NCBI RefSeq assembly: GCF_946478785.1
Contig: NZ_CAMLDD010000005.1
Location: 124,001 to 188,000 of the forward strand
DNA length: 64,000 nucleotides
Origin: an uncultured Flavobacterium sp.
GTDB lineage: Bacteria > Bacteroidota > Bacteroidia > Flavobacteriales > Flavobacteriaceae
Reading direction: 5' to 3'
Each line of letters starts with the position of its first letter. The stretch's first letter is position 1. A model generated the notes under the pieces. The model was not told where the DNA came from. It saw only the letters and a list, made by a program, of their open reading frames with translations, and searched no databases. Below, piece after piece: positions 17,936 to 55,390 of this stretch. Both the position numbers and the translations under genes were made by a program.

Positions 17936-17980
17936 TAAATGTAAATGCGATTTGCGAATTTGCTATCCTGTTCCATCCTG
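17936..17980 (-). promoter_or_regulatory. Decamer-pair promoter a (GH106 operon)
   Basis: Read on the minus strand: decamers CAGGATGGAA (17980-17971) and CAGGATAGCA (17970-17961), then 17 bp, then TACATTTA (17943-17936), which matches the TAnnTTTG -7 box except the last base. It lies about 75 bp upstream of the GH106 ATG. Confidence 0.8.
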
Positions 17981-18201
17981 CTGTTTATTATTCTCAATAA
18001 TTTAGTAAATAAATAATGAAGTATATTTTTTTTAATTTGTCATTTTTTTATGTAAAAAAGTATGAATCTATAAAAAATAATTTAGTTAAATTTTAAATTT
18101 CATATGGAGAAGAACAGGGTGAATTTGTATTGTTAATCAGTATGTTGTCCAAGTATTGTTAAATAAAAATTAAATTAAAAACATAATATACTGAAAGTTA
18201 A

Positions 18202-18246
18202 CAGGATACTACAGGATGCTGTCGAAAGTACTTCTGAATAAATTTG
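18202..18246 (+). promoter_or_regulatory. Decamer-pair promoter b (first susC)
   Basis: CAGGATACTA (18202-18211) is followed directly by CAGGATGCTG (18212-18221), then 17 bp and a perfect -7 box TAAATTTG (18239-18246). It is 34 bp upstream of the susC ATG. No -33 TTTG is seen, because the second decamer occupies that position, as expected for an activator-dependent promoter. Confidence 0.87.
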
Positions 18247-18280
18247 GTTAAACTATTTTAATTAACCAAAAACATTTTTT

Positions 18281-21200
18281 ATGAAAAACAAATTTAGTCT
18301 TTTGCTGATTTTGGCCATGTTTGTGTTATTGCATACATCAGGTTATGCGCAAAACAAAGTGGTTAAAGGAACAATCACTGACGGGTCAGGATTACCAATA
18401 CCGGGAGCTAATGTTCTCCTCAAAGGGACCAGGACGGGTACTAGTACTGATTTTGATGGTAAATACTCTATAAGTGCTGCACCGGGACAAGTATTGGTTT
18501 TTTCTTCTACTGGCTCAAAAACAGTAGAGATGACCGTAGGTCAGAATTCTGAACTTAATGTAAAACTTGCCGAAGAAATATCTCAACTGAATGAAATTGT
18601 AGTTGTTGGATATGGAACTCAAAAGAAATCTGATGTTACTGGAGCTGTTTCAAGTGTAAATGCTGAGCAATTAATGAATCGACCAGTACCTAATGCTGTA
18701 GAAGCATTGCAGGGTAAGGTTGCAGGGGTTGATATTACCACTAACGAACGCCCTGGAACTGTTGGTAGAGTACGTATTCGTGGCCAGCGTTCAATAACCG
18801 CAGGTAGTGATCCATTATATGTTGTAGATGGTGTGCCTTTGTTGTCTGCATCTGGTATTGAAACGCTAAATCCAAGAGATATAGAATCTATGGATATTCT
18901 TAAAGATGCTTCTGCTACAGCTATTTATGGTTCACGTGGAGCTAATGGAGTTATTATTATAACAACTAAACAAGGAAAATCGGGCAGGTTTACCATGAAC
19001 TATGCAGGTACGGTAACCACTTCAGATATAGTGGACAGAGCCCCATCAATGAGTGCATCTGACTTTATTACCTTCAGACGTTGGGCTGCATACAATAGCC
19101 CTGAACGTATTGTAGGAGGTGTTGCAATTCCATGGGCTCACCCTGATTCACCAACTTATGAAAATGATAAATTCATTTTTGGTAGTGGTTTAGATGGCGA
19201 GACATCTAGAGATAATGTGTTGAAAGGATGGGAAAGTGGTACATGGGATGCTTCTAAAGTAACTAACACAAACTGGACTGACATAGTTACTCAAACAGGA
19301 ATTTCCACAGAACATGTTTTAAGTGCAAGCGGAGGTTCTGAAAAAGTAAATACGTATGCTTCTTTAGGTTATTTAGATAATACCGGTACCCAAAAAGGAC
19401 AATGGTATAAACGTTATACTGCAAAACTTAGTTCAAATATTAATCCTGTTCCATGGTTTAAAATGACTGCTTCTTTAAATGGATCATGGAGCGAACAGGA
19501 TTATGGTATGTCAACTTTGAGTGCAAGAAGCAGCTCAGTACCTGATGCGATATATGGCGTTGCTAAACAACTTTTTAATCATGCAGTTCCTTATGATGCA
19601 AATGGTAATATTATTATTAACCCAGGAGGAGAATCTGGTATTTATAGCATAATGGATGAATGGAACAGAAGTACTCAGCAATCTCAAACCTTTCGTCTTT
19701 TAGGTAATTTTTCTACAACTGTTGATTTTGGTAAGATTTGGAAACCGATAGAAGGACTTACTTATAAGATAAATTTCGGACCAGATTTTCGTCATTGGAG
19801 AGAAGGGGTTTATATTGATGGAACATCATCACTTAAGGTAAACGCTAACGGTAGTGCCGGAGTTAATTTTGCGAGACTTCAAAATCGTCGCGATTTGTCA
19901 TGGACTTTGGATAACATGATTAACTACGATCGTACCTTTGCTGCGAAACATAAAATAGGAGTAACTTTACTGCAGACAGCATCATCCTGGGATATTGAGA
20001 GCTCCTCTATGAGTGCGAATAATATTCCAAAACCTTCTTTCTTATGGAATGCTATGGGGCAAGTAGATGTTACAAATGCTAATAATAAAGCTTCTATGGG
20101 GTCTAATCTCATACAAAGCGGACTTACTTCTTACATGGCTCGTTTAAATTATGGTTTTGATAACCGTTATTTATTGACTTTTTCAGGTCGTTGGGATGGT
20201 GCTTCAGTATTAGCCGAAGGGAATAAATGGGACTTTTTCCCTTCTGCAGCATTGGCTTGGCGTATCAATAATGAGGATTTCTTAAAAGAGGTAAACTGGA
20301 TTGAAAATCTAAAACTTAGAGTTGGTTTTGGTACAGTGGGTAACTCTGCTGTTGATCCTTACGGTACATTAGGAAACCTTCGTACTGTATATCTTCCTTT
20401 TAATGGTATCAGTAACCAAATGGGGCAAGTAACAAACGAACCTTATTATACCGCCCCTAATGATTTGACAGGAATGCCTAATCCTAATTTGAAATGGGAA
20501 AAAACCAAACAATATAATCTTGGACTTGATTTTAGTTTGTTAAATAATAGAGTTAGTGGAACTATCGAAGCATATAAAAGCTTTACAGAAGATTTACTAT
20601 TAAGAGCAGTTATACCAACTGTAACAGGATATCCTTTTATAGTTGATAATATTGGTAAAACACAAAATGAAGGTGTTGAAGTAACTCTTAATCTTATTCC
20701 TGTACAAACGGCTGATGGATTTACCTGGGAAACTAACTTAAATGGTGCATGGCAAAGGGACAAAATTGATGAACTGGTAAACGGTAGGCAAGATATGGTA
20801 GGTAATTCATGGTTTATTGGAGAATCTATTAATGTTCGTTATGGTTTTGATAATCAGGGATTATGGCAGGACACTCCTGAAGATCAGGCTGAAATGGCTA
20901 AATGGAATGCTAATGGAGAGAAATTTTCACCAGGTAGAGTACGTCCTGTTGACCAGAATGGAGACTACAGAATGACTCCTGAAGATCGTGTTGTTTTGGG
21001 AAATAATAATCCTAAGTGGACAATGGGATGGAATAATAACTTTACCTATAGAGGGATTGAATTAGGAGTAAATATTTACGGACGTATGGGCTATACTGCT
21101 AATTTGGGAGGTCAGGCAATGACTGGTCGTGCGAATCAAATTCAGGTAGATTACTGGAGACCGGATAATACCGATGCAGAATTCCAAAAACCAATTTTGG

Positions 21201-21463
21201 GTCAGGCATCGTCAGGTTCGCAGGATGCTTATGCCGGACTTCTTGGTTTTCAAAAGGCGTCATTTGTAAAAATTCGTAATATTTCCGTGGGATATAATTT
21301 ACCTAAAGATGTTACAAGCAATATTGGACTGGCAAATATGAAAATTTATGCTCAGGCAATAAATCCTGGAAGTATATATCAGTCGTTAGACTGGTATGAT
21401 TTTGATACAGACAGAACTTATTTCAATCGCAGTTTTGTTATGGGTATTGAAGTTGGGTTTTAA
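18281..21463 (+). CDS. SusC/RagA-family TonB-dependent outer-membrane transporter (pair 1)
   Basis: A 1060-residue SusC-like transporter that, with its SusD partner, imports oligosaccharides across the outer membrane using TonB energy. The order is signal peptide (ends GYAQ), carboxypeptidase-regulatory-like domain (VVKGTITDGSGLPIPGANVLLKG, about 28-100), TonB-box-like region with LNEIVVVGYGTQKKSDVTGA, plug (about 115-235, including ILKDASATAIYGSRGANGVI) and beta-barrel. It ends with an aromatic C-terminal strand (VMGIEVGF), as expected for an outer-membrane barrel. It starts the main plus-strand operon under promoter b. The ligand is inferred to be RG-I oligosaccharide from the surrounding enzymes. 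Confidence 0.95.
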   Translation: MKNKFSLLLILAMFVLLHTSGYAQNKVVKGTITDGSGLPIPGANVLLKGTRTGTSTDFDGKYSISAAPGQVLVFSSTGSKTVEMTVGQNSELNVKLAEEISQLNEIVVVGYGTQKKSDVTGAVSSVNAEQLMNRPVPNAVEALQGKVAGVDITTNERPGTVGRVRIRGQRSITAGSDPLYVVDGVPLLSASGIETLNPRDIESMDILKDASATAIYGSRGANGVIIITTKQGKSGRFTMNYAGTVTTSDIVDRAPSMSASDFITFRRWAAYNSPERIVGGVAIPWAHPDSPTYENDKFIFGSGLDGETSRDNVLKGWESGTWDASKVTNTNWTDIVTQTGISTEHVLSASGGSEKVNTYASLGYLDNTGTQKGQWYKRYTAKLSSNINPVPWFKMTASLNGSWSEQDYGMSTLSARSSSVPDAIYGVAKQLFNHAVPYDANGNIIINPGGESGIYSIMDEWNRSTQQSQTFRLLGNFSTTVDFGKIWKPIEGLTYKINFGPDFRHWREGVYIDGTSSLKVNANGSAGVNFARLQNRRDLSWTLDNMINYDRTFAAKHKIGVTLLQTASSWDIESSSMSANNIPKPSFLWNAMGQVDVTNANNKASMGSNLIQSGLTSYMARLNYGFDNRYLLTFSGRWDGASVLAEGNKWDFFPSAALAWRINNEDFLKEVNWIENLKLRVGFGTVGNSAVDPYGTLGNLRTVYLPFNGISNQMGQVTNEPYYTAPNDLTGMPNPNLKWEKTKQYNLGLDFSLLNNRVSGTIEAYKSFTEDLLLRAVIPTVTGYPFIVDNIGKTQNEGVEVTLNLIPVQTADGFTWETNLNGAWQRDKIDELVNGRQDMVGNSWFIGESINVRYGFDNQGLWQDTPEDQAEMAKWNANGEKFSPGRVRPVDQNGDYRMTPEDRVVLGNNNPKWTMGWNNNFTYRGIELGVNIYGRMGYTANLGGQAMTGRANQIQVDYWRPDNTDAEFQKPILGQASSGSQDAYAGLLGFQKASFVKIRNISVGYNLPKDVTSNIGLANMKIYAQAINPGSIYQSLDWYDFDTDRTYFNRSFVMGIEVGF

Positions 21464-21503
21464 TAATTGTGACGAATTGAAGTATAACAATAAAAGTAAA
21501 AAA

Positions 21504-23609
21504 ATGAATAATATTAAAAATATAGGAATAGGTCTTTTGTTAATGACCGGGTTATTTTTTAGCTCCTGTTCGGAAGATTTTCTGGACGAAGAGCAAACAA
21601 ATGCTTTTTCGACAGCTTATTATGATACACCTGAAGGGCTTCAAGCCTTGACAGTATCGCTATATGGGAACATTCGTTGGCATTTCGGCTTTGAATGGTC
21701 TTATGGTACTACACTTTATGGAACTGATGAGTTTACGAATGCAAACGACCTAACTAACGAAATGTGGAATACTTATGATAATCGTTTGAATCCATCTGGG
21801 GCTAGACCAGAGACAGGAGCAGCTAACGGGAATGCTACAGGGCCAACAGATCTTTGGGATCAAATGTATTTTGGTATTGCATCAGCAAATACAATAATTG
21901 CTAAAGCTGAAAAGGTAATCCCCGATTTAAAAATCAGAAACCGTTGTTTAGCACATGCTTATTTTTTAAGAGGTTATAATTATTATAAACTTGCTGCTCA
22001 GTATGGTAGCGTTGCTCTTCAAACTGTTCCTTTAGAAGGTGTTGTTGTTCGTAATTACACACGTTCTACAGAAGAACAATGTTGGGAACAGGTAATATCT
22101 GATTTCCGTCAGGCTTATTCTCTTTTTGAAGGTGAAGTTTTTACTTATGGTAAAGGTATAACCTGGACTAAGGCAACTGCAGCACATTTTCTTGCAAAAT
22201 CATTGCTATTCCGTGTTTCTGAACGTAATAATAAATGGAATAGTTCTTACAAAGATGCAGATCTTAAAGAGGCAATTGATGCCTGTACCTATGCTATTGG
22301 TGCACGTGGTGCATTAACGCCAAATTATAGTGATCTTTATGCTAACTGGACAGGAATTGACAACCCGAATGAGCAGTTGAATGAAATTTTAATGGCAGCA
22401 GGTTTTAATGGTGATGCAGCTACTGCCGGTCGTTACGAAAACCGTACATTTAGTTATTTTACACCTCAGTTTTCCGCCTTTTCAGGAGGTTGGGTTGCAC
22501 GTGGTGTATGGATAGGCGCTATGGACTTTCAGCGTTGTCGCCCTACTGAGTATGCTTATGCAGTTTATGACCACGTAAATGATGCGCGTATGTGGAAAAC
22601 CTTTAAAACTGTTTATGGTGTGACTACTTTGAGAACACCAAATCCAACCGGCATTAAACTTGGTGATCCGGCTATTGTTATGATATTAAATAATAAAAAT
22701 GACAATACTTATAACTCGTATAAATTTGGAGCCGCACCTCAAGGACCAAACTGGAAAGATGATGCAGGACGTTTACCTGAGTGGACTGTTGGAAACAGAC
22801 AAACGCCAACTAATGGTGGTTTGACAAGTAAAGTAGGCCAGTTTGTTCCTAATTCATTGGTTCTGTACCAAAACGGAACTTATGTTGCACCAACATTTGG
22901 AAGTGCTACTGTTTGTAATTTCTTTGCAGGTATAAATAAGGCAGATTGTGGTTCTCGTACCGGAGAAAGATCAAATTCTAACCGTGACGGGATTATGGCT
23001 CGTCTTGCAGAAACTTATTTAGTACGTGCAGAATGTTATGTTCGTCAGGGAGATTATGGAAATGCCATGAAAGACATAAACACTGTTAGAGAAAGAGCGC
23101 AATGGAAAAGTGGTGAAAACAGATCTTACTATAGTGATGGTTCTCAAGCTTTTAAAGCAAATCCACTAAATACAGGTTCTTTGGCAACAAATTTCATAAA
23201 TGCAAATTTAGATATGAATACCTATTATTTATCAAATCCGACTGTTCCAGTTACAACAGCAGCCTCAAATTTGAGATTAATAACTTTCCCTGCTAATCTG
23301 CCAGCTGAAGACGAAGAAATTCTTACAAAAGTAGAAGCAGGAAGTGATTATGAGCGCGCATTGCATTTTGTGCTTAATGAGTATAGCCGTGAATTGTTAG
23401 GTGAATTTCTAAGATGGGAAACGCTATCCAGAACAGGTACTTTGATTAAAAGAGCAAAAGCTTTTAATCCGGAAGCAGCACCTAGAATTACAGCAAACAA
23501 ACATGAGTTACGCCCTATTCCTCAAACATTTATTGATGTATTGTCTAATGCAGACGGAACGAATTTATCTGCAGAACAAAAAGCTGCTTGGCAGAATCCT
23601 GGTTACTAA
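21504..23609 (+). CDS. SusD/RagB-family surface glycan-binding lipoprotein (pair 1)
   Basis: The partner of the preceding SusC. I use the ATG at 21504, which gives a 701-residue lipoprotein precursor (MNNIKNIGIGLLLMTGLFFSSCSED) with a lipobox ending at Cys. An earlier in-frame start would overlap susC and bury the signal peptide. SusD hallmarks include FLDEEQTNAF after the lipobox, the TPR-like segment AHAYFLRGYNYYKLAAQYG, RLAETYLVRAECYVRQGDYGNAMKDINTVRERA, and the C-terminal LNEYSRELLGEFLRW and LRPIPQTFID. It is long for the family, with insertions in the ligand-binding half. An intrinsic terminator follows 30 bp after the stop. Confidence 0.94.
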   Translation: MNNIKNIGIGLLLMTGLFFSSCSEDFLDEEQTNAFSTAYYDTPEGLQALTVSLYGNIRWHFGFEWSYGTTLYGTDEFTNANDLTNEMWNTYDNRLNPSGARPETGAANGNATGPTDLWDQMYFGIASANTIIAKAEKVIPDLKIRNRCLAHAYFLRGYNYYKLAAQYGSVALQTVPLEGVVVRNYTRSTEEQCWEQVISDFRQAYSLFEGEVFTYGKGITWTKATAAHFLAKSLLFRVSERNNKWNSSYKDADLKEAIDACTYAIGARGALTPNYSDLYANWTGIDNPNEQLNEILMAAGFNGDAATAGRYENRTFSYFTPQFSAFSGGWVARGVWIGAMDFQRCRPTEYAYAVYDHVNDARMWKTFKTVYGVTTLRTPNPTGIKLGDPAIVMILNNKNDNTYNSYKFGAAPQGPNWKDDAGRLPEWTVGNRQTPTNGGLTSKVGQFVPNSLVLYQNGTYVAPTFGSATVCNFFAGINKADCGSRTGERSNSNRDGIMARLAETYLVRAECYVRQGDYGNAMKDINTVRERAQWKSGENRSYYSDGSQAFKANPLNTGSLATNFINANLDMNTYYLSNPTVPVTTAASNLRLITFPANLPAEDEEILTKVEAGSDYERALHFVLNEYSRELLGEFLRWETLSRTGTLIKRAKAFNPEAAPRITANKHELRPIPQTFIDVLSNADGTNLSAEQKAAWQNPGY

Positions 23610-23639
23610 AATTGCCCCCTATCTATAAATTGTTTTTTG

Positions 23640-23670
23640 AAACCGTCTCAACATTGAGGCGGTTTTTTTG
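23640..23670 (+). terminator. Intrinsic terminator after susD (pair 1)
   Basis: Stem AACCGTCTCAA / TTGAGGCGGTT (one G-U pair) with a 2-base loop, followed by seven T. It closes the first SusC/SusD unit. Its sequence closely resembles the terminator behind the second pair. Confidence 0.88.
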
Positions 23671-23877
23671 TTTAAATTGGTATTGAAAAAATGGAGATGG
23701 ATGTATACTTGATACAATTTATTTTTTCAAATATTAAATACTCATTTTTCTTTTAATGATTTTTTGAGTTATTAATTTCCTTTATGTTAAAAAGTGATTA
23801 ATTAAGTATTTTTTGGTTAAAAAAGACAACGACTCATGTAGAATGTTGATATTTAGGTATATATGGTATTGTGTGTG

Positions 23878-23922
23878 CAGGACAGTACAGGACACTACAG
23901 AAAATTCTTCTAAATAAATTTG
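23878..23922 (+). promoter_or_regulatory. Decamer-pair promoter c (second susC)
   Basis: CAGGACAGTA (23878-23887), CAGGACACTA (23888-23897), 17 bp, then TAAATTTG (23915-23922). It is 34 bp upstream of the second susC ATG, the same distance as promoter b from its gene. CAGAAAA immediately after may be a vestigial third repeat. Confidence 0.87.
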
Positions 23923-23956
23923 AGTTAACTAATTAATTAACCAAAATTTAACATTT

Positions 23957-26900
23957 ATGAAAATTAAATTAAATCTTCTGCTGATTGTAGCGATAATGGC
24001 ATTGCTCAGTGCCTCATCTTACGCACAGGGTAAAGTAATTAAAGGTGTCGTAAAGGATGCTTCAGGATTACCGGTGCCTGGAGTTAATGTACTTATTAAA
24101 GGAGGACAAAGAGGTGTAAGCACGGATCTTGACGGAAGTTACTCTATCAATGCGGCTCCTGGAAATATTCTTGTTTACAGCTTTATTGGTTTTAAGAAAC
24201 AGGAAATTACCATTGGTAATGCAAATGTTTATGATGTTGTACTTCAGGAAGAAGATAATTCGCTTGAGGAAGTTGTTGTTGTTGGTTACGGGGTAAGAAA
24301 GAAAAAAGACCTGACTGGATCTATTGTGAGTGTAAGTTCTGAAGTCATAGATTCCAGACCGGTTCAAAATGCAGTTCAGGCAATGCAGGGAAAAGCTGCA
24401 GGGGTTGATATTACCTCAAATGAGCGTCCTGGTACTGTAGGAAGAGTAACAATCCGTGGCGCACGTTCAATTTCCGCTTCAAACTCACCACTTTATGTAG
24501 TGGATGGAGTTCCAATTAATAATTCAAAACCATTAGCCGGGGCATTAGGTAAATCAATCAGTGATGTGAGTGATTCCAATGCGGGAGGTATTGATTTCTT
24601 GAATCCCAGCGACATTGAGTCGATTGATGTTTTAAAAGACGCATCTGCGACTGCAATTTATGGTTCACGTGGAGCAAATGGAGTTATTATTGTAACCACT
24701 AAAAAGGGTAAAAATGGTAAATTTACATTAAACTATAACACTTCGCTTACTACAGAAGATATTCGTGAGAATGCTCCAATGATGTCTGCTGGTGAATATA
24801 TAGATTTTCGCAGATGGGCAAGATATTATTCAAATCCATCAGCTTTCCCAAAAGGAGATGCCCCTACTATTGCAAACGATGAATTGATTTTCTTAAAATC
24901 TGCAGATCCTTCTGCATGGGCAAACATTTCGAAAGGATGGGAGAATGGTACATGGGATGGTTCGAAAGTAGCAACTACAGACTGGGCAAAGTTTGTAACC
25001 CGTACAGGAGTTACTCAACAGCATACTGTAGCTGTTAGTGGAGGAACAGAAAAAATGAAAGGATACGGCTCATTTGGTTATACAGGAAATACAGGAGTTT
25101 TAAAAGGCCAAAGTTTTAAACGTTATAATGGTGTAGCAAACGTGGACATTACAGCAACCGACTGGTTTTCTATGGGAGCTAATTTAAACACGAGTTATAG
25201 CATAAATGAGTATGGGCAATCCAATATAGGAAGATCAGCTGTAAGCAGTACAACCGGAATATATAATTCGGCACGTCTTAACCTTCCATATGCAGTTCCG
25301 TACGACAGTAACGGTAATAGAATAGATAACCCGGGAGGAGACAATACTATCAGAACGGTTATTGATGAAGATAAATATTCTCAGGATCAACGTTTAACAT
25401 TACGGGCTTTTGGTAGTTTGTATGCTCAATTAGATTTAGGAAAACTTATTCCGGTATTGGATGGTTTAAAATACAGATTAAATTTTGGACCGGATATCAC
25501 TTCCTATCGTAATGGTGTATTTTTAGATGCCAGATCTGCTGCGCGTTCAGGAACAAGTTTTGCTTCATTGATTAAATCGCAAACAATATCGTATACATTA
25601 GATAACCTGCTTTTTTACAATAAAACTTTTGGAAAGCATGATTTAGGTCTGACATTTTTACAGAGTAAAACCGGATATGAATATGAAGACAGCATGATGG
25701 CGGCAAATGATGTTAAAAATCCAGAGAACAAATGGAACGCTTTAACTCCTGCAAATGTAACTCTTAGCAACTATTCAACTAATTTAATTGAGTCAGGCTT
25801 GCTGTCTTATATGGCAAGAGTAACGTATGGCTATGACAATAAATATTTGTTAACTGCCTCTGGTCGTTATGATGGGGCATCACAATTAGCTGATGGAAAA
25901 AAATGGGACTTTTTTCCAAGTGCTTCATTAGCCTGGAATATGAATCAGGAGAATTTTTTAAGTGATGTTTCCTGGATAGATCAGTTAAAGCTTCGGGTAG
26001 GTTTTGGAATTACCGGTAATGCTGCCGTTGATCCTTATTCTACACAGCCTCCATTGGCTGGTATTGTTTATCCTAACGGTTCCGGTTTAGTAAATAATGC
26101 AACCTTAGGAAATCCAGATCTGGGATGGGAAAAAACAAAACAAATTAACTATGGTATTGACTTTTCTTTTGTGAATAGCAGAATATCAGGAACTTTAGAG
26201 TATTATACCAGTGATACAACAGATTTATTGTTAAGGAGAAGCGTACCTACACCTACAGGGTTTAGGGATACTTTTGAAAATGTTGGTGAAACAGAAGGAG
26301 AAGGTGTAGAGCTTACATTAAATACTATAAATGTAAGAGCAACAGATTTTGAATGGAGTTCAAATTTGAGTTTTTCTTATCAACAAAGCAGAATTGTGGC
26401 ATTGGCAACTGGCAAATTCGATGATATAAATAATAATTTATTTATAGGTCAGCCACAAAATGTACTTTATGGGTATGAGTCAAATGGAATTTGGAAACCA
26501 GAAGATGCTACAGAAATGGCTAAGTTTAATGCAAATGGTGCCGGATTTACATTTGGTAATGCAAGGCCTGTGGATCAAAATGGTGATTATAAAATTGATG
26601 CTAATAATGACCGTGTAATAATTGGCAGTGCTGATCCTAAATATATTGCCGGGTTAACCAATACATTTAGATATAAAAATGTAGAATTATCAGTCTTTAT
26701 TTACGGCCGTATGGGGTATACATATAATACAAATGGAGAAAATTCAGGTGCTAAGGGCAGTCAGAGATCTATCGATTATTATACAGATAACAATACGAAT
26801 GCTGAATATCAAAAACCAATTTACTCTGCGGGTACAGGAGATGCTTTTTTTCCAATCTTGGGTTATCGTGATGGTGATTTCTTAAAAGTGCGAAATATAT

Positions 26901-27079: not shown

Positions 27080-27103
27080 AATTAAAATTTAATAATCATA
27101 ATT

Positions 27104-29047: not shown

Positions 29048-29062
29048 TACATTTATATTTTT

Positions 29063-29092
29063 AAACCGTCTCGATTTGAGACGGTTTTTTTT
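29063..29092 (+). terminator. Intrinsic terminator after susD (pair 2)
   Basis: Perfect 10-bp stem AAACCGTCTC / GAGACGGTTT, loop GATTT, then a T run. It is homologous in sequence to the terminator of the first SusCD pair. Confidence 0.92.
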
Positions 29093-29103
29093 ATTTAATA
29101 AAG

Positions 29104-29148: not shown

Positions 29149-29154
29149 AATATT

Positions 29155-29251: not shown

Positions 29252-29321
29252 ATTGGTCTCAGAAATAGTTTAAATCTATGCACTTTAGTGCATTTAGCTT
29301 TAGCTTCTAAAAATATTTTAA

Positions 29322-29520: not shown

Positions 29521-29549
29521 AAGTTTTAGTATCTAAAATTAAAATAAGA

Positions 29550-47231: not shown

Positions 47232-47260
47232 GTAGAATAAACTCTAAATTGGAAAAAATT

Positions 47261-48628
47261 ATGAATAAGAAAATGCAATTATTTGTTCTGTTATCATTTT
47301 GTTTTTCAGTTTCTTTCAGCCAGATAAGTCAAAACACAATAACAGAAAAACCAAATATTATTTTGATTATTGCCGATGATGCCGGGTGGAATGATGTTGG
47401 ATACCACCGTTCAGTAATAAAAACGCCCAATATTGATTTTTTAGCCAAAAATGGAGTAGAGCTGAATCGGTTTTACGCCAATCCAACCTGTTCGCCTTCA
47501 AGAGCGAGTCTGTTAACCGGAAGGCCTGCAAGCCGTATGGGAATTGTAGCTCCAATAAGTGATAAAAGCCAGTTTAGGCTTCCGGATTCTATTCCGACTT
47601 TGCCAAAGCTACTATATCAGAATAATTATGAAACGGCACTTATTGGCAAATGGCATCTTGGATTGCAGCAAAGCAGCGGACCAAAGGCATACGGATTTGG
47701 TTATTCATACGGCTTTTTGCACGGACAAATAGATCAGTACACCCATCTTTATAAAAACGGAGACAAAAGCTGGTATCGAAATGATGAATTTATTGAAGAG
47801 GAAGGCCATGCAACCGATTTAATTACGAATGAAGCTATTCAATGGCTTTCAAAGAAAAGGGATTTGAAGAAAAATTTCTTTTTGGAAGTTGCCTACAGCG
47901 CACCACATTTTCCCTTGCAGGAAGAACAAAAATGGAAAGATCCTTATATGAATTCCATAAAAGACAGTTCACGCAGAGATTATGCCGCTGCTATGAGTCA
48001 TTTAGATTACAGTATTGGAATACTATTGCAGATATTAAAAGAGCAAAATCTCGATAAAAATACTTTGATTATTTTTATGAGTGATAACGGTGCGATGGAA
48101 AATTGGGATTCCAAAAATGAGTATAACGGTATTCATCCATCAAATCCTACTCTTGGAGATAATTTGCCACTCAGGGACTGGAAAACATCCAATTACGAAG
48201 GAGCAATAAGGGTTCCTTGTATCTTTTATTGGAAAGATCATTTAAAGAACCAGAAGATTGAAAATTACATTTCGGTTATAGACTTGTTGCCGAGTATTTT
48301 ATTTTTGGCCGAGGATAAAAATCTGCCACAAAGTATTGAAGGAAAGAATGTCTGGAATGCAATTTCAGGCAGTAAAACGGTAACCAATTCTGAAATTTAT
48401 ATCAGAGGTCATTTGCAGGAATCTTTAATCAATAAACCATGGAAAATAATCAGAACCAGACATGCCAATACTCCTGCAGATTATGAGCTTTATAATATCG
48501 AAAAAGACCCTGAGGAAAATAATAATATTTTATCTCAAAATAAGACCATAGCTGAAAAAATGAAAATTGACCTGGAAAACCAATTTAAAAAGGATGCTAA
48601 AAAAGTAAATTATGAGAAATTAAAATAG
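47261..48628 (+). CDS. Sulfatase of the S1 (arylsulfatase) family
   Basis: A 455-residue exported sulfatase using the ATG at 47261 (MNKKMQLFVLLSFCFSVSFSQ signal); a TTG 12 bp earlier is possible but unneeded. The formylglycine motif is CSPSRAS with Cys77, matured by a sulfatase-modifying enzyme encoded elsewhere. Metal ligands are expected in PNIILIIADDAGWNDVG (Asp39, Asp40). GKWHLG near residue 134, FMSDNGA and the APHFPLQ segment complete the S1 pattern. Its substrate is unknown; a sulfatase is unusual in a land-plant pectin locus and suggests sulfated side chains or a broader diet. It lies 29 bp after GH115, at the end of the promoter-g unit. No terminator is visible behind it. Confidence 0.92.
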   Translation: MNKKMQLFVLLSFCFSVSFSQISQNTITEKPNIILIIADDAGWNDVGYHRSVIKTPNIDFLAKNGVELNRFYANPTCSPSRASLLTGRPASRMGIVAPISDKSQFRLPDSIPTLPKLLYQNNYETALIGKWHLGLQQSSGPKAYGFGYSYGFLHGQIDQYTHLYKNGDKSWYRNDEFIEEEGHATDLITNEAIQWLSKKRDLKKNFFLEVAYSAPHFPLQEEQKWKDPYMNSIKDSSRRDYAAAMSHLDYSIGILLQILKEQNLDKNTLIIFMSDNGAMENWDSKNEYNGIHPSNPTLGDNLPLRDWKTSNYEGAIRVPCIFYWKDHLKNQKIENYISVIDLLPSILFLAEDKNLPQSIEGKNVWNAISGSKTVTNSEIYIRGHLQESLINKPWKIIRTRHANTPADYELYNIEKDPEENNNILSQNKTIAEKMKIDLENQFKKDAKKVNYEKLK

Positions 48629-49353: not shown

Positions 49354-50859
49354 TTATTTAGAAATTTCAATATAATCCTTCAGTCCGCAGTCTTTTATTT
49401 TTTTGAGACTTTCTGCAACAGCAAGCGCATTAAAAGCAGCTCCTTCAGCTCCGGTGTGCGTATGATCTTTTGGAAAAAACGGTTTCACTTTTTCTTTTCC
49501 TAAGGCTTCATACTTTAAGGCAACAATTTCATTGAGATCGATATAAAAAGCACCTTGATTTTCTGCGGCTGTTTTTGACCATTTACCATAAGAATCACTT
49601 CTGCGTTCTACTTTATCATTTGGCCATTCGTTTCTTGGCGTTTGACTCAAAACAATAGGGATTGCGCCTTTTTCTTTAGTTTCCTTAATGAATTTCTCCA
49701 TGTACCACCCAAAAGTGTGAACGGTTTCAGTTAAGCTGTCACGAACGACCTGTTGTGTCTCATCTCCATTTCCTTTTAATGAACCTCTGAATTTTTCTTT
49801 ATCAACCGCTCCGGCATCATTATGACCAAACTGAATCATGACAAAATCTCCCGGTTTTAATTCATTTTTTACAGCATCCCATAAGCCTTCTTTAGTATAA
49901 GTGCGGGTACTTCTTCCACCACGTGCTTTATTGATCACTTCAATTCTGGTGGTATCACAATATTTTGGAAATGCAACTCCCCAGCCCACAGCATTGGGAT
50001 TATTACCATTGTTTGCCATTGTAGAATCACCTATTAAAAACACTCTTTTCTTAGCTGGAAGTACAATTTTAGGATCTTTTAAAATATATTTTTTTAAGGA
50101 ATTTTTGCTTGCTTTCAGTTCATTGATAATTAAAGAAGCTGCCAATACAGCACCTTTTGCAGAGGGATGTGTATGATCTTTTTTATAGAAATAAGTTCCA
50201 GTTACTTTTTGTTGGCCTAACTTTTCCATTTCAATAGCCATTTTATCATTTAAATTGATAAAAGTTACCTTTTCCTTTTCTGCTATTTGTTTAGCCCACA
50301 ATCCGTACGATGTATCGTTACGCGGTACTTTTCCGTCTTTCCAGTCATTTCTTGGAATAGGGGAGCAAATTATCGGAATGGCACCTTTTGATTTGGCTTC
50401 CCGAACCACTTTCTGAATGTACCAGCCGTATGTATGAACGATTTCATGCTTTTTGGTCAGCATATTGTCAATTTCCTCAGTTTCGTTCCCGATTCCTTTA
50501 ATAGTGCCTCTCGCACGAAGAGTGTCATTCAAAGGACCGTTATCGTTATGTCCAAACTGAATCAGCACATAATCTCCTTTTTTGAGCTTTTTATAAACAG
50601 CCTCCCATAAACCTTTATCCTGAAAAGTTCTGCTGCTGGTTCCGCCTAAAGCGTGATTTTCGATAGTGACTTTTGTAGTATCCAAAAACTGTCCAATATA
50701 ATCTCCCCAGCCCCAGAGTCCACCGGATCCATCGCCTCTGCCGTTTTTTACGGTGGAATCTCCTACGGTGTAAACAATTGGTTTGGTTTGTGCTTTGGCA
50801 GAGAAATTGAAGAATAATAGTCCTAAAAACAGTATTGTAATTATTTTAATTGATTTCAT
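49354..50859 (-). CDS. Tandem CE12 rhamnogalacturonan acetylesterase (two SGNH domains)
   Basis: A 501-residue exported protein (signal peptide through SAKAQ) made of two complete SGNH/CE12 domains. Domain 1 (about 27-250) has Ser35 in TVGDSTVK, the HALGGTSSRTF glycine block, QFGHNDNGPLND and the DHTHPSAKGA Asp/His. Domain 2 (about 265-500) repeats these as LIGDSTMANN (Ser near 277), KARGGRSTRTY, QFGHNDAGAVD and DHTHTGAEGA. CE12 enzymes remove acetyl groups from galacturonate of RG-I. Both domains look catalytically intact. It is the last gene of a CE12-GH2-CE12x2 operon, after a 107-bp gap. Confidence 0.9.
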   Translation of the reverse strand: MKSIKIITILFLGLLFFNFSAKAQTKPIVYTVGDSTVKNGRGDGSGGLWGWGDYIGQFLDTTKVTIENHALGGTSSRTFQDKGLWEAVYKKLKKGDYVLIQFGHNDNGPLNDTLRARGTIKGIGNETEEIDNMLTKKHEIVHTYGWYIQKVVREAKSKGAIPIICSPIPRNDWKDGKVPRNDTSYGLWAKQIAEKEKVTFINLNDKMAIEMEKLGQQKVTGTYFYKKDHTHPSAKGAVLAASLIINELKASKNSLKKYILKDPKIVLPAKKRVFLIGDSTMANNGNNPNAVGWGVAFPKYCDTTRIEVINKARGGRSTRTYTKEGLWDAVKNELKPGDFVMIQFGHNDAGAVDKEKFRGSLKGNGDETQQVVRDSLTETVHTFGWYMEKFIKETKEKGAIPIVLSQTPRNEWPNDKVERRSDSYGKWSKTAAENQGAFYIDLNEIVALKYEALGKEKVKPFFPKDHTHTGAEGAAFNALAVAESLKKIKDCGLKDYIEISK

Positions 50860-50873
50860 CTTTTTTTGTTGTT

Positions 50874-50962
50874 AGTTGATGGTTGATGGTTGACGGTTTA
50901 TAGTTTTGACTTTAATCTTTTACTTTTAAAACCAACAACCATCAACTGTCAACCAACAACCA
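50874..50962. repeat. Imperfect inverted repeat of GTTGATGGTTG words
   Basis: The gap between tandem-CE12 and GH2 holds AGTTGATGGTTGATGGTTGA (50874-50893) and the complementary AACCAACAACCATCAACTGT (50931-50950), able to form a long imperfect hairpin in the operon mRNA. A short relative, GATGGTTGTTGGTTAGTTAG, is at 13805-13824. Confidence 0.65.
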
Positions 50963-50966
50963 AATA

Positions 50967-53822
50967 TTAATTTCTAAAATCAAACCACAAATTCATTTTA
51001 ATACCTTCATCTCCGCTTTTGATTCGGATATTGGTTGGCTGACTTTCCGGGCCCTGATGCTCCAGAGGTTTGAAATCTCTCATCGCCGGAATTTCATACA
51101 TAAACGAAATGTCTCCTTCTGGAAATACAGGTTGTGGATAACTTCCTGCGAAACCATTTTTTGGTAAATCAGGCGTAAATAATCTCAAAAATAAATTATC
51201 AGATTCACTGAAAACTTTAAATGATGATGCTCCGGCCTTTAAATTGGCACCTAATAAGTTGGCATGATAGCCTTTAAATTCAGGATAAACCAGATTTTCA
51301 AAACTTTCGCCTGTTATGGTGGTGTTGTAATTCTTCTCCCAAATACCGTATGTAGTTCCTTTTAATCTGTTTTTCCAAACGTGGTAAGGACCTTTTCCAA
51401 ACCATTTCATTCCGGTAACTCCTTTTTCAGGAAAACTAAAAGTAATTCCCCACGAATTTATTTTATCTTCAAAAGCAGCGCCATCAAAGCCGCCATTGTT
51501 TTGTGAGTTTTTCAAAGCAATCAATTCCATTTTGAATCTTCCATCCGGTTCCATAATCCACTTGATAGAGGATAAACCTCCCAGATATAATACTTTGCAG
51601 ATGGCTTTATCGCCTTCCTGTGAAACCTGAACTTCTTTTAGTTTGGCTTTCATCCCAATCGGGCGTGGACCATTTGTTAGCGGAATAGTGGAAGATCCGT
51701 TTTTAACAGAAGTAATTTCTCCTGTCAAAGCATCCAAAGTTACGGTTACATCGTTTCCTTTTAAAGTGATTTCATTGCCTGTTTTGACTGCTGAAGCTTT
51801 TGCTTTTGTGTTTTGAACTGCTAAGAATTTTTCAGCATAATATTTTGCTTTGTGAATAGGCCAGGTCCAGGTATAAATTTCTTTATTGAACTGATCATAA
51901 GCCGAAATGGATAAAACATCACCTTCTGCAAAATTATTCGGTACAGCGAAGTGTATTTTACGTGTTTCTCCTGGATCAATACTCGGAATTTCAATTTTTC
52001 CTGAACTGAGTTCTTTTGAAGTTCCATTAGAATAAAGCACATCTTTATCAGATTGCAATACTTTAAATTCCATTTTGCAGGAATTCAGGTTACTGAAAAG
52101 ATAATCATTAGTAATTAAAAACGATCCGTCAAAAGTAGGAGTAACCTGTTTTGGTTGAAACTGAATTGGTGCCCAAACTTCTTTTACAGTATAATAACTA
52201 CCTTCTTTTTCACGGTGTGGACCTAAAATTCCATCGGCAGCCAAAGAACCTTTTGAGTCGAATTTAGTATCTCCTGTCCAATCAGAGCGAAATACAGCTT
52301 CGTCTAACATCGCCCACATAAATCCTCCTGCAAAAAGCGGACTTTGTTTATAACGTGTCCAGAAATCTTCCAGAGCGGCTCCGTGACCGTTATCGTAAGT
52401 TCCGTGCATGAATTCGGTTGGGAAAAATACATTTTCTCCATTGTTAAAACGGTGCATTCCGGTTAGATAAGTCGGGTAGTGATGCGTGTCCCAGCCATTA
52501 AAATCAGACCAAGGGTGAATTACGATTCTTTTTTGTGGATCATTATCTTCAAAAACTTTATCAACGTTGTAATTCCATCCGCCTTCGTTACCATTGTCCC
52601 AGATAATTACAGAAGGATGATTTACGTCTCGAACAACCATTTCAGTTACTAATTTTGTTCCTGTTTCGGTATCATAAGCGTTTTGCCAGCCCGCTAATTC
52701 ATTCAGTACAAAAAGGCCTAAAGAATCACAAACTTCAAGAAAGTGCTGATCAGGTGGATAATGTCCACGAACAGCATTCATATTCATGTCTTTGATCAAT
52801 TTCACATCTAATTCGCTGATGCGTTTACTAGTGCTTCGTCCTCCTTCCGGCCAGAACGAATGACGATTGATTCCTTTCATCACGATTTTGGTACCGTTTA
52901 CATAAATTCCGTCTTGTTTTTTAAACTCCAAAGTCCTGAAACCAATTCGTTTGTCGTATTTATGAATGATGTTTCCGTTTTGTTTTAAAACTAATTCCAA
53001 ATCATATAAATTGGGACTTTCCGGATTCCATGGTTTGATGTTTTTCCACTGAGCTGCAATGGATGACTTGATACTTTTTGCTTTTACAGGAAAAGTAAAA
53101 GTTTCGAATTTTTCTCCGTTTAAACCTTTCAAAGTAGCTTCTAAAACAGCATTTTTGGAAATGTTTTTTAGATCTAAATCTACTGTAATTGAACCGTCCA
53201 TTTTCGGATTTACGGCAATATGCTTGATATGGGATTTAGGAGAAACTTCCAGCCAGACCGGACGATAAATACCGCCAAACAGCCACCAATCGGCTTTTCT
53301 TTCGGCTGCGTTGACTGATTTATTAGCAGAATGTTTCCAAACATGCACTTCTAAAGTATTTTTTGAGCCAAATTTCAAGAGTGAAGAAATATCATATTTG
53401 AATTCATAAAAACCACCCTGATGAATGGCTCCGGCCAATTTTCCGTTGATTTTTACTTCAGTATCGGTCATGGCACCTCCAAAAGCAATCAGAACCTCTT
53501 TATCCTTATAATCAGCAGGAACTTCAAATTCGTATTTGTATAAGCCTTCTTCCTTGCTTGGTTCTTTTTGGTTTAATTCCTTATACCATCTTCCATACGT
53601 ATATTCTCCAAAACCTTCCAATTCCCATTGGGATGGAACGTTTATTTTAGACCATTTTTGACTGTTATTTCCTCCGGTACAATAAAAATCCCATTGTACG
53701 GGATGTTCAAAATCTTTTCCCGAAAGGTAGATTTTATCAGTTTGCTGAGCCGCACTATTTTGGTAAGAAAACAAAGCAATGGCAGCAATAGCAAAATTTA
53801 GAATGTTTTTTTTAAGTAGCAT
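50967..53822 (-). CDS. GH2 beta-galactosidase
   Basis: A 951-residue exported enzyme, using the ATG at 53822 (MLLKKNILNFAIAAIALFSY, then QNSAAQQ); a longer frame would overlap the upstream CE12 gene. Sugar-binding domain (WSKINVPSQWELEGFGEYTYG), Ig-like domain and barrel follow. Acid/base Glu is in IWDNGNEGGWN near residue 410 and nucleophile Glu in FFPTEFMHGTYDNG near 470. A C-terminal Bgal_small_N-like beta-sandwich (about 690-950, GMKWFGKGPYHVWKNR) is the LacZ-type domain 5. This is a clearer beta-galactosidase than the other GH2 here and would act on galactan side chains of RG-I. It lies 22 bp after the CE12 gene. Confidence 0.92.
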   Translation of the reverse strand: MLLKKNILNFAIAAIALFSYQNSAAQQTDKIYLSGKDFEHPVQWDFYCTGGNNSQKWSKINVPSQWELEGFGEYTYGRWYKELNQKEPSKEEGLYKYEFEVPADYKDKEVLIAFGGAMTDTEVKINGKLAGAIHQGGFYEFKYDISSLLKFGSKNTLEVHVWKHSANKSVNAAERKADWWLFGGIYRPVWLEVSPKSHIKHIAVNPKMDGSITVDLDLKNISKNAVLEATLKGLNGEKFETFTFPVKAKSIKSSIAAQWKNIKPWNPESPNLYDLELVLKQNGNIIHKYDKRIGFRTLEFKKQDGIYVNGTKIVMKGINRHSFWPEGGRSTSKRISELDVKLIKDMNMNAVRGHYPPDQHFLEVCDSLGLFVLNELAGWQNAYDTETGTKLVTEMVVRDVNHPSVIIWDNGNEGGWNYNVDKVFEDNDPQKRIVIHPWSDFNGWDTHHYPTYLTGMHRFNNGENVFFPTEFMHGTYDNGHGAALEDFWTRYKQSPLFAGGFMWAMLDEAVFRSDWTGDTKFDSKGSLAADGILGPHREKEGSYYTVKEVWAPIQFQPKQVTPTFDGSFLITNDYLFSNLNSCKMEFKVLQSDKDVLYSNGTSKELSSGKIEIPSIDPGETRKIHFAVPNNFAEGDVLSISAYDQFNKEIYTWTWPIHKAKYYAEKFLAVQNTKAKASAVKTGNEITLKGNDVTVTLDALTGEITSVKNGSSTIPLTNGPRPIGMKAKLKEVQVSQEGDKAICKVLYLGGLSSIKWIMEPDGRFKMELIALKNSQNNGGFDGAAFEDKINSWGITFSFPEKGVTGMKWFGKGPYHVWKNRLKGTTYGIWEKNYNTTITGESFENLVYPEFKGYHANLLGANLKAGASSFKVFSESDNLFLRLFTPDLPKNGFAGSYPQPVFPEGDISFMYEIPAMRDFKPLEHQGPESQPTNIRIKSGDEGIKMNLWFDFRN

Positions 53823-53844
53823 AAAAAGGTTGTTTTTATATGGG

Positions 53845-55221
53845 TTAGTTGCCATCTGGTTTCGTAATTTCAAATCGTTCACTCATAGGGAGCGTCCAGT
53901 TTGAAATATAATTAGGTTTCTTTGGATTGTAATTTAAAACTTCTTTTCTGATTTGTTTTTTTAACGGAATATCAAGTTCACGAATTCCCTTAACAACACA
54001 AAGTGCTATTTCGTTCGCTCCAAAACTATTAAAATGAGTATTATCTTCCAAAGCTTTTACCTGTCCCGGAAAAGTATTGGCAGGATACTGCACAAAAGCT
54101 TTTCTGGAGGGCTCATCTCCCCAGGTTTCGTATAATTCGGTTGTCATTTTGGTAACGTCGATAAGGGCTACATTGTTTTTTTGTGCCACAGTTCGCATCG
54201 CAGCAGGAAAATCACCATGCGTTTCTTTTAAAGTGCCATTTTCATTAAAAGCACGGCGTTGAGTAGGTGTCACTAAAATCGGAATTGCTCCTTTATCTCT
54301 TGCAGATTGAACAAATTCGGCTAATAATGTAGAATAGGAACCCCACGCGCCGTTTCCTTCGCCTTTTATTTTTTCGTCATTATGTCCAAATTCGACAAAA
54401 AGATAATCTCCTTTTTTAATCAATGAAAGTATCTTTTTTAAACGATTTCCACCTTTAAAAGAGCTCAGTGCAGAACCTGAAACCGCATAATTGGCTACCA
54501 CAACAGTATCATCAAAATAATTTGTGATAAATTGTCCCCACGAAGCCCATGGCTCTACATCCTGATCGGTAACTGTTGAGTCTCCGGCTAAATAAACCAC
54601 GGTTAAATTGTCTTTTGGAGTAATTTTAATGCTTTGAACAGCAACTTCTCCTAAAAATTCCAGCGTGAGTTTATCATCCCAATTCAAAATATCTTTTTCT
54701 CTGTCTTTAAGGGAAACATTAAAAATGTCATCAATTTTTGGAGTTCTGACATTCACGTTGAAAACTTTTGTAACGGGTTTTCCTTTTTTGATAGAAAGCT
54801 GATCCAGCATTAATCTTCGTGATTCTGCTTTTATAGTAACATTAGATTGTTTTTCAGTGCTTCCCATAACCACTTCAATCTGATAATTTCCTTCGGGAAG
54901 TTTTACGGAAAAATAAGTTGGTTTAGTTGCTGAAAATGAATTCGGATTGATTTTTACATTGGAGGCCGAATTAATATCAAAACCGTATCCTGTTGCCTGG
55001 TTGTAAAGTAAAGCACTATTTATAAGAATTCCATTTCTATTTTTTGAAATATTTCCAAAATAAAATAGTTGCGTCACAGTATTGCTTTTTACTGAAAGCT
55101 TGTCATTAATTTTAGGTAAAGTATTGCAATCATTTAAATAGCCATTAAAATTGAAAGCAAATAAATTTACCTGTATTACAAAACAAAAAATAATCAAGAA
55201 GGAAGTTTTAATTTTTATCAA
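53845..55221 (-). CDS. CE12 rhamnogalacturonan acetylesterase with N-terminal binding domain, TTG start
   Basis: No ATG is available at the 5' end. A TTG at 55221 gives 458 residues with a clean signal peptide (M-IKIKTSFLIIFCFVIQVNLF, ending FAFN). Another TTG at 55251 is rejected because it lies inside the -7 box of promoter h. Residues about 30-195 form a CBM35/malectin-like sandwich (LLYNQATGYGFDINSASNVK). The SGNH domain follows with Ser in LAGDSTVTDQ near 216, NYAVSGSALSSFKGG, EFGHNDEKIKG and DNTHFNSFGANEIA. CE12 deacetylates RG-I. It heads a minus-strand operon with GH2 and the tandem CE12, divergent from the DUF4450 gene. Confidence 0.88.
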   Translation of the reverse strand: MIKIKTSFLIIFCFVIQVNLFAFNFNGYLNDCNTLPKINDKLSVKSNTVTQLFYFGNISKNRNGILINSALLYNQATGYGFDINSASNVKINPNSFSATKPTYFSVKLPEGNYQIEVVMGSTEKQSNVTIKAESRRLMLDQLSIKKGKPVTKVFNVNVRTPKIDDIFNVSLKDREKDILNWDDKLTLEFLGEVAVQSIKITPKDNLTVVYLAGDSTVTDQDVEPWASWGQFITNYFDDTVVVANYAVSGSALSSFKGGNRLKKILSLIKKGDYLFVEFGHNDEKIKGEGNGAWGSYSTLLAEFVQSARDKGAIPILVTPTQRRAFNENGTLKETHGDFPAAMRTVAQKNNVALIDVTKMTTELYETWGDEPSRKAFVQYPANTFPGQVKALEDNTHFNSFGANEIALCVVKGIRELDIPLKKQIRKEVLNYNPKKPNYISNWTLPMSERFEITKPDGN

Positions 55222-55248
55222 GTTTTTCTCTTTTAAATTATACAGAAT

Positions 55249-55293
55249 CAAAACTAATGGTTCCTTTTTTATATAGCATCCTGTACTATGATG
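55249..55293 (-). promoter_or_regulatory. Decamer-pair promoter h (CE12 operon)
   Basis: Minus strand: degenerate first decamer CATCATAGTA (55293-55284), then CAGGATGCTA (55283-55274), 17 bp, TAGTTTTG (55256-55249), a perfect TAnnTTTG. It sits 27 bp before the TTG start at 55221. Confidence 0.8.
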
Positions 55294-55335
55294 TTAAAAA
55301 ATTGAAAGAATATAAATTATGATATTGCAAAAAAT

Positions 55336-55390
55336 CAGGTAGGTACAGGATGCTATCCCGTAAAAAAACAAAGAAATTGCGTTAATATTG
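55336..55390 (+). promoter_or_regulatory. Decamer-pair promoter i (DUF4450 gene), atypical spacing
   Basis: CAGGTAGGTA (55336-55345) and CAGGATGCTA (55346-55355). At the usual 17-bp distance only GAAATTGC is found; TAATATTG (55383-55390), one mismatch to the -7 box, lies 27 bp away, i.e. one extra helical turn. The ATG follows at 55442. Confidence 0.68.

What the first reader, a model, noticed from the sequence alone, without database searches (positions are those of the whole stretch)
17936..55390. A shared operator-promoter: tandem CAGGA decamers exactly 17 bp before the -7 box at ten sites
Ten intergenic sites (a 17936-17980 minus, b 18202, c 23878, d 29104, j 29476, e 31334, f 35107, g 41666, h 55249-55293 minus, i 55336) carry two adjacent decamers of consensus CAGGATAGTA and CAGGATACTA. 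In nine of ten the next element is a TAnnTTTG-like box exactly 17 bp on. Two 10-bp direct repeats over the -33 region, with no -33 box, suit an activator of AraC/HTCS type docking on one face of the helix. The sites precede almost every unit of the pectin locus, on both strands, and none precedes the glycogen genes. That defines a single regulon and a searchable motif.
Basis: partly seen in the sequence, partly recalled or inferred. Interest (0 to 1): 0.9.

Follow-up and report, generated by a model that had tools for sequence, protein, structure and literature searches.

The report
Rhamnose-pectin switch: tandem-decamer operators
Ten look-alike DNA switches stand in front of almost every gene block of a pectin-eating gene cluster in a Flavobacterium-type genome, and comparison with relatives suggests that they are read not by the usual membrane sensor but by a soluble rhamnose-pathway regulator that controls several rhamnose-containing polymer loci together.

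Summary
The ten sites are the ten best matches of the window in leave-one-out scoring; nine have TAnnTTT(G/A) exactly 17 bp after the second decamer. Nine relatives' genomes hold 101 such sites against 0 for the reversed pattern.

The proposed AraC/HTCS regulator is not supported. The best candidate is a GntR-winged-helix plus LacI-type-sensor protein, divergent from the rhamnose operon in F. hydrophilum, with a site 113-299 bp upstream in 9 of 9 genomes. In 199 Flavobacteriaceae genomes sites and orthologue co-occur in 41, with one exception each way; the AraC candidate is in 5, the locus HTCS in 6. Two paralogous subfamilies carry their own period-10 repeats with other half-sites. The regulon follows rhamnose: RG-I, a GH141/rhamnosidase locus, rhamnose catabolism and, in one relative, an ulvan-lyase-type gene.

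Binding, ligand and activation are inferred, not shown. The window's own genome is not held.

The parts
17936..17980 (-). site a: decamers 17961-17980, box TACATTTA 17936-17943; before the GH106/GH88/GH2 genes
   Evidence: similar sites in relatives
18202..18246 (+). site b: decamers 18202-18221, box TAAATTTG; before susC1-susD1
23878..23922 (+). site c: decamers 23878-23897, box TAAATTTG; before susC2-susD2
29104..29148 (+). site d: decamers 29104-29123, box TAAATTTG; 401 bp before the SASA-type esterase gene
29476..29520 (+). site j: weak first decamer, box TATCTTTA; 29 bp before the same gene
31334..31378 (+). site e: box TAATTTTA; before the RGL11-type rhamnogalacturonan lyase (31406-35041)
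35107..35151 (+). site f: box TATATTTG; before the remnant of a gene that is full length in relatives
41666..41710 (+). site g: box TAAATTTG; before GH43, GH28, GH115, sulfatase genes
55249..55293 (-). site h: first decamer CATCATAGTA, box TAGTTTTG 55249-55256; before GDSL, GH2, GDSL genes
55336..55380 (+). site i: decamers present, box degenerate (GAAATTGC); before the DUF4450 gene
   Evidence: same degenerate box in L008 and in F. hydrophilum
9043..17860 (-). genes downstream of a: GH106, GH88, GH2, esterase-like (co-transcription assumed)
18281..35041 (+). two susC/susD pairs, esterase, RG lyase (downstream of b, c, d/j, e)
35998..48628 (+). PKD protein, DUF4861, GH88, 446-aa protein, GH43, GH28, GH115, sulfatase (downstream of f and g)
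49354..55251 (-). GDSL, GH2, GDSL genes (downstream of h)
55442..63398 (+). DUF4450, 747-aa protein, RGL11-type lyase (downstream of i)

Best explanation
The sites are operators of a cytoplasmic GntR-LacI chimeric regulator (winged helix in front, LacI-type sugar-sensing domain behind; AraR-like build) whose gene, in F. hydrophilum, is divergent from the rhamnose transport and catabolism operon. Two subunits sit head to tail on the two decamers (about -49 to -30), one helical turn apart, where the -33 element would be, and from there help sigma-A RNA polymerase at the TAnnTTTG box (-12 to -5). The signal is most likely L-rhamnose or an early product of it. The regulator switches on the RG-I locus, a second pectin-type locus, other pectin genes and rhamnose catabolism together. 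Shown by computation: the sites, their rigid spacing, their conservation, the regulon content in F. hydrophilum, co-occurrence with the regulator, and class-specific operators of its paralogues. Inferred: binding, head-to-tail dimer, activation, ligand, and that the window's own strain encodes the regulator.
For: (1) Neighbourhood: a strong match (41-100% identity) is in 9 of 9 genomes, each with a motif site 113-299 bp upstream on the opposite strand. (2) Co-occurrence in 199 family genomes: orthologue (>=54% identity) in 42, sites in 42, both in 41, neither in 156; Fisher p = 2.8e-40; with two sites demanded, 36 of 42 against 0 of 157. Both exceptions have a motif-like site beside the regulator by looser scans (G181 = L157; G073 = L185). 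(3) Operator family: in 510 bp upstream of 112 regulator ORFs a tandem repeat plus box at spacer 15-19 is found at period 10 in 39, at periods 7, 8, 9, 11, 12, 13 in 0, 2, 1, 1, 1, 0; period 10 in ten Markov-2 sets 0-5, in downstream stretches 2, inside the gene 0. (4) Each subfamily has its own half-site and neither of the others': I CAGKAYASYR-CAGGAYA 21 of 53, II CTRGTAGG..CTRGTA 34 of 40, III CAGAACRGAACAG 8 of 8; III also in 1 of 11 unclassified. (5) Recognition helix SRDTV is near-invariant in the three classes; the next two residues read EK in I, L and mostly M, T or Q in II, FK in III. II and III are each one clade. (6) Rigid geometry: in the SusC-selected loci 53 of 56 strict sites have TANNTTTR at offset 17, none at 16 or 18. 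(7) Content: sites before rhaT, a rhamnosidase-like gene, a SusC, and, by matrix only, GH141+rhaM; in G171 before an ulvan-lyase-type and the fused aldolase/dehydrogenase gene. (8) Fold: LacI-type sensor in Foldseek.
Against: No binding, expression or ligand datum exists here. The window's genome is not held. GntR-family operators are typically palindromes, and AraR of Bacillus, alike in build, is named a repressor (PMC4494728, passages and a reference title). Direct repeats of MocR-type GntR proteins are said to lie two or three helical turns apart, not one (PMC5320631 passage). Only 21 of 53 subfamily-I genes have the strict operator in the 510 bp examined, and 23 of 30 orthologue loci have a matrix hit above 14 within the locus. 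In regulator-selected loci only 18 of 30 subfamily-I sites and 11 of 34 subfamily-II sites have the box at 17. Subfamily III fails the repeat-plus-box test (0 of 8). Genome relatedness is not corrected for in the Fisher test; orthologous sites are not independent; the pattern was widened after seeing sites beside regulators; the orthologue threshold and the hand-set classes were chosen. One site each in F. hydrophilum precedes an NrtR-like gene and an unannotated 734-aa gene.
Confidence: 0.78

Rival explanations
1. Same regulator and operators, but it is a repressor: it covers the -33 region without sugar and leaves when rhamnose or rhamnulose binds, as AraR and some DeoR-type RhaR do.
For: DeoR-type RhaR of Chloroflexus and Rhizobium are negative regulators (PMC3870299 passages); AraR repression is named in a reference title of PMC4494728; LacI-type sensors usually release DNA on sugar binding (recalled).
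Against: An exact 17-bp distance to the -7 box (53 of 56 SusC-selected sites) and decamers in place of a -33 element are more typical of activators; repressor sites usually vary in position (inference).
Confidence: 0.14
2. An HTCS or another AraC-family protein of the locus binds the tandem decamers.
For: Position over -33; HTCS are common PUL regulators; an AraC gene lies 0.1-1.3 kb from a site in the second locus of G001, G002, G003, G004 and G006; HTCS-sized AraC frames lie within about 20 kb of the RG-I sites in G005 and G007, the latter confirmed as an HTCS by its domains.
Against: Motif period 10 against about 21 for HTCS and AraC-type RhaR in the papers; the AraC protein is in 5 of 199 genomes with only weak partial matches in G008 and G009; the HTCS is in 6 of 199 at E <= 1e-200 (three candidates scored per genome). 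No ORF of 1300 aa or more in the 115 kb fetched around the F. hydrophilum RG-I locus.
Confidence: 0.04
3. Another factor, such as a DeoR-type RhaR (10-11 bp direct repeats are known for those), reads the sites and the GntR-LacI gene is merely a neighbour or a target.
For: DeoR-type RhaR operators have 10-11 bp periodicity (PMC3870299 passages).
Against: G004, with 12 sites, has one weak DeoR-HTH match, in a 323-aa frame; class-matched operators of the GntR-LacI paralogues would be left unexplained.
Confidence: 0.04

Closest known systems
AraR of Bacillus subtilis (AraR subfamily of the GntR family)
   Same: GntR winged helix fused to a GalR/LacI-type sensor domain (PMC4494728 passage); sugar-catabolic regulator; Arg at the same place of the recognition helix (aligned by eye)
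   Different: AraR is described in Firmicutes as an arabinose repressor with palindromic sites (the latter recalled); here tandem 10-bp direct repeats 17 bp before the -7 box, presumed activation, neighbours of rhamnose, galactose and FGGY-kinase genes, Bacteroidota
HTCS regulators of Bacteroides PULs (HTCS_Rgu-1, HTCS_Rgu-2)
   Same: predicted control of rhamnogalacturonan PULs; direct-repeat operators
   Different: membrane sensor of oligosaccharides, AraC-type HTH, repeats about 21 bp apart, usually co-located with their locus
RhaR of Bacteroides thetaiotaomicron (BT3768, AraC family)
   Same: activator of rhamnose catabolism
   Different: AraC family, 21-bp period, regulon of a single operon
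DeoR-type RhaR (Chloroflexus, Rhizobium, Thermotoga and others)
   Same: rhamnose operon, direct repeats of 10-11 bp period
   Different: other protein family; repressor in Chloroflexus and Rhizobium
TauR and other MocR-type GntR proteins
   Same: GntR winged helix, direct repeats (TauR CTGGACYTAA), several are activators
   Different: aminotransferase-like sensor domain; repeats said to be two or three helical turns apart; taurine/GABA/PLP genes

Membership tests
AraR subfamily (GntR-LacI chimera) | N-terminal GntR winged helix | tested here: met
   PF00392 E 2.4e-12; AraR DNA-binding domain 4egy matched at 2.2e-6
AraR subfamily (GntR-LacI chimera) | C-terminal GalR/LacI-type sensor domain | tested here: met
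   PF13377 E 3.3e-6, 27.7 bits against a cut-off of 26.5; Foldseek hits to RbsR, LacI and CcpA
AraR subfamily (GntR-LacI chimera) | palindromic operator (recalled for AraR; typical of GntR in PMC4494728) | tested here: not met
   operator is a direct repeat of period 10
AraR subfamily (GntR-LacI chimera) | repression relieved by sugar | not testable with these tools
   needs expression data
HTCS regulon | direct repeats about 21 bp apart | tested here: not met
   period 10; comparison PMC3878776 passage
HTCS regulon | HTCS gene co-located and co-occurring | tested here: not met
   6 of 199 genomes; not near the locus in F. hydrophilum, though near it in G005 and G007
AraC-type RhaR regulon | AraC-family gene co-occurring with the sites | tested here: not met
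   the one candidate tested is in 5 of 199 genomes; weak partial matches only in G008/G009. Other AraC proteins (17-84 per genome) were not tested one by one
DeoR-type RhaR regulon | DeoR-family regulator present with the sites | tested here: inconclusive
   1-4 HTH_DeoR matches per genome, only one weak in G004; not tested one by one
MocR-type GntR | aminotransferase-like C-terminal domain | tested here: not met
   LacI-type domain instead
Bacteroidota sigma-A promoter | TAnnTTTG -7 box at -12 to -5 | tested here: inconclusive
   TANNTTTR in 9 of 10; position relative to the start needs mapped starts

The most novel reading that the evidence does not exclude
Flavobacteriaceae (and at least one Lacibacter) have a family of soluble GntR-LacI activators, one per sugar (rhamnose, galactose, and a sugar entering by an FGGY kinase, possibly xylose), each with its own tandem-decamer operator, in the rhamnose class 17 bp before the -7 box. 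In them whole polysaccharide loci (RG-I, RG-II-like, ulvan-type) are wired to the monosaccharide in the cytoplasm rather than to a locus-bound membrane sensor: one super-regulon per sugar, with an operator code readable from recognition-helix residues 56-57.
Probability: 0.5. Interest if true: 0.85.

Novelty: new variant of a known kind. Interest (0 to 1): 0.72.

Why it matters
PUL control is usually told as a membrane sensor or sigma/anti-sigma pair per locus. Here up to 16 sites per genome tie several loci and the central rhamnose pathway to what looks like one cytoplasmic protein, which predicts that flavobacteria induce RG-I, other rhamnose-bearing pectin and, in some, ulvan genes together on rhamnose alone. 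The motif plus N17 box is specific enough (237 hits in 199 genomes against 1 for the reversed pattern) to list the regulon in other sequenced flavobacteria, and the paralogue/operator pairs give a ready set for working out a specificity code of GntR helices.

Tried and rejected
Rejected: HTCS as binder, AraC of the second locus as binder, DeoR as binder (see rivals). A plain CAGGA-N5-CAGGA count gave little. Subfamily III repeats (CAGAACGG) lie right at the regulator start without the N17 box in the sense tested; they may be autoregulatory. Upstream regions of the 43-45% paralogues: those of G001 and G003 showed no tandem of the tested kind with G+C content (an A+T-rich chance match in G001), that of G002 shows CAGCACAGAACAGGACACAT-N17-TACATTTG. 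Of 55 SusC-selected loci, 31 (24-39% SusC identity) have no site at two mismatches. On checking, the odds of the repressor rival went from 0.17 to 0.14 only so that the four add up to 1; no other odds changed.

Literature: searches of the held open-access library, of which I saw the listed titles and starts of abstracts (7 of 7, 20 of 97, 20 of 24, 5 of 5, 20 of 22, 20 of 39, 12 of 16, 15 of 73 papers), listed none that by title or abstract start describes such tandem operators or a GntR-LacI rhamnose regulator in Flavobacteriaceae. Of the papers cited I saw passages only, never a whole text. Statements marked recalled come from no call.
Full report
What was checked. The window is a Flavobacterium-type RG-I utilisation locus: GH106, GH88, GH2, two SusC/SusD pairs, two RGL11-type lyases, GH28, GH43, GH115, sulfatase and esterases, next to glycogen genes. 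The ten sites were read directly and scored with a leave-one-out matrix: they are the ten best positions of the window. TANNTTTR stands 17 bases after the second decamer in 9 of 10. A CAGGA-N5-CAGGA count alone is weak (3 against 0.35, 12 against 5.9, 66 against 61.6 expected at 0, up to 1, up to 2 mismatches), so the evidence rests on whole decamers and the spaced box.

Conservation. A scan of genome contigs with the second SusC gave 55 loci. 23 of them went into the matrix scan: all 21 Flavobacterium loci, Tamlana nanhaiensis (L019) and Lacibacter cauensis (L012) had hits above 14, mostly at like distances from the SusC gene; the two Lacibacter hits were weak (15.6, 15.3). With a pattern, 31 of the 55 loci (24-39% SusC identity) had none at two mismatches. 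In these SusC-selected loci 53 of 56 strict sites have TANNTTTR at offset 17, none at 16 or 18; at two mismatches 83 of 88, one at 18. In regulator-selected loci it is 18 of 30; over all loci held, which include some fetched because of the motif, 91 of 116, against 1 site for the reversed pattern. Sites of related species are not independent.

Regulon. The window's genome is not held. Nine relatives' whole genomes gave 15, 14, 16, 12, 9, 14, 10, 6 and 5 sites, and 0 for the reversed pattern in each. In F. hydrophilum (G001) the 15 are: 9 in the RG-I locus and before rhaT and the rhamnose operon (RhaT, fused aldolase/dehydrogenase, isomerase-like and FGGY kinase genes); 3 in a second locus before a rhamnosidase-like enzyme, a SusC and a BNR-repeat protein, where a further matrix hit precedes a GH141+rhaM gene; 1 before a gene with a distant match to pectate lyase PelZ and a T9SS tail; 1 before a gene with a distant match to NrtR; 1 before an unannotated 734-aa gene. 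GH141 suggests RG-II (recalled). In G171, another family member, sites precede an ulvan-lyase-domain gene, a BNR gene, a GH5-GH3 pair, GH39 and GH43 genes and the fused aldolase/dehydrogenase. Rhamnose is the common thread.

Regulator. Divergent from rhaT in F. hydrophilum lies a 346-aa protein with a GntR winged helix and a LacI-type sensor domain. A strong match is in 9 of 9 genomes (100, 98, 98, 97, 94, 93, 93, 74 and 41% identity), each with a motif site 113-299 bp upstream on the opposite strand; the divergent gene was identified only in F. hydrophilum. Over 199 Flavobacteriaceae genomes the orthologue (E <= 1e-120, >=54% identity; threshold set after seeing the gap between 54% and 47%) is in 42 and the sites in 42; 41 have both, 1 only the orthologue (G181), 1 only a site (G073, which has a 43% relative), 156 neither (Fisher 2.8e-40, relatedness not corrected). 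Demanding two sites: 36 of 42 against 0 of 157. Looser scans show a motif-like site beside the regulator in both exceptions (L157; L185). Of 30 orthologue loci 23 have a matrix hit above 14. The AraC candidate is in 5 of 199, the HTCS in 6 of 199 (three candidates scored per genome).

Operator family. 112 regulator ORFs of the GntR-LacI family from 107 loci were collected. In 510 bp upstream, tandem 6-mers plus box at spacers 15-19 occur at period 10 in 39 of 112; at periods 7, 8, 9, 11, 12, 13 in 0, 2, 1, 1, 1, 0; at period 10 in ten Markov-2 sets in 0-5, in downstream stretches 2 (3 at period 9), inside genes 0 (2 at period 8). Subfamily-specific half-sites do not cross between I, II and III: I 21 of 53, II 34 of 40, III 8 of 8; one of 11 unclassified genes carries the III type. 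The classes were set by hand from bit score, locus and before the tree; the tree puts II and III each in one clade (100/98 and 100/100), while I needs 3 changes because unclassified rows fall inside it. Subfamily III fails the box test (0 of 8). Neighbours were scanned in a sample: in II an aldose epimerase (L121, L195) and a galactokinase (L188), but a FAD protein in L120; in III an FGGY kinase (L131), and an alginate-lyase gene on the other side in L133. Residues 56-57 read EK in I (52 and 50 of 53), L36/I3/M1 with a mixed next residue in II (40), FK in III (8 of 8). In AraR the Arg of the recognition helix contacts G (PMC4494728 passages); the residue at the same place by eye, R52, is the same in all 101 classified rows.

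Fold. An AlphaFold2 model of a Flavobacterium gilvum orthologue with 57 sequences has pLDDT 90 and pTM 0.72. Foldseek's best hit is a putative regulator at 1.7e-12, followed by RbsR, LacI and CcpA; sequence search matches GntR domains including AraR.

Mechanism. With the -7 box at -12 to -5 (PMC9723704 passages), decamer 2 covers about -39 to -30 and decamer 1 about -49 to -40. A rigid one-turn repeat replacing the -33 element points to an activator touching RNA polymerase; this is inference, and a repressor reading stays open. GntR proteins are mostly known on palindromes, but direct repeats occur, for example in MocR-type activators such as TauR, there two or three helical turns apart (PMC5320631, PMC4494728 passages).

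Novelty. Open-access searches (listed titles and abstract starts only) listed no description of this operator and regulator pair. The protein build is known (AraR subfamily); the operator geometry, the multi-locus rhamnose regulon and the paralogue code look new. In F. johnsoniae a paper reports pectin-induced Sus proteins and a transcriptional regulator, WP_012022876.1 (PMC8056085 passages); whether that is this protein was not tested.

Noticed in passing
window 35152-35998: The gene after site f looks like a remnant: F. hydrophilum has a 339-aa ORF there and L001, L002, L004 and L010 full-length single-frame matches, while the window matches only residues 300-339 at E <= 1e-5. The promoter site is still conserved.
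   Followed up: partly
L120-L125, L127, L188-L222 except L190 and L202: GntR-LacI subfamily II, in sampled loci beside galactokinase or aldose-epimerase genes, with CTGGTAGGTACTGGTA or CTAGTAGGGTCTAGTAGG repeats: likely galactose regulators.
   Followed up: partly
L126, L128-L134: Subfamily III, beside an FGGY kinase in L131; repeats of the CAGAACGG type, in some flanked by a TTAGCAT...ATGCTAA palindrome right at the regulator start.
   Followed up: no
L096:4057-4805: A site with a triple CAGGAC run precedes a gene with a distant NrtR match in F. hydrophilum; look-alike sites in G002 and G003, genes there not checked. Possible link to arabinose control.
   Followed up: no
L138, L139, L144, L145, L151: Two subfamily-I regulator genes lie in tandem in several relatives, perhaps splitting rhamnose regulons.
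   Followed up: no
L227:1225-3699: A gene with an ulvan-lyase domain follows the operator in G171, suggesting the same switch for ulvan in some flavobacteria.
   Followed up: partly
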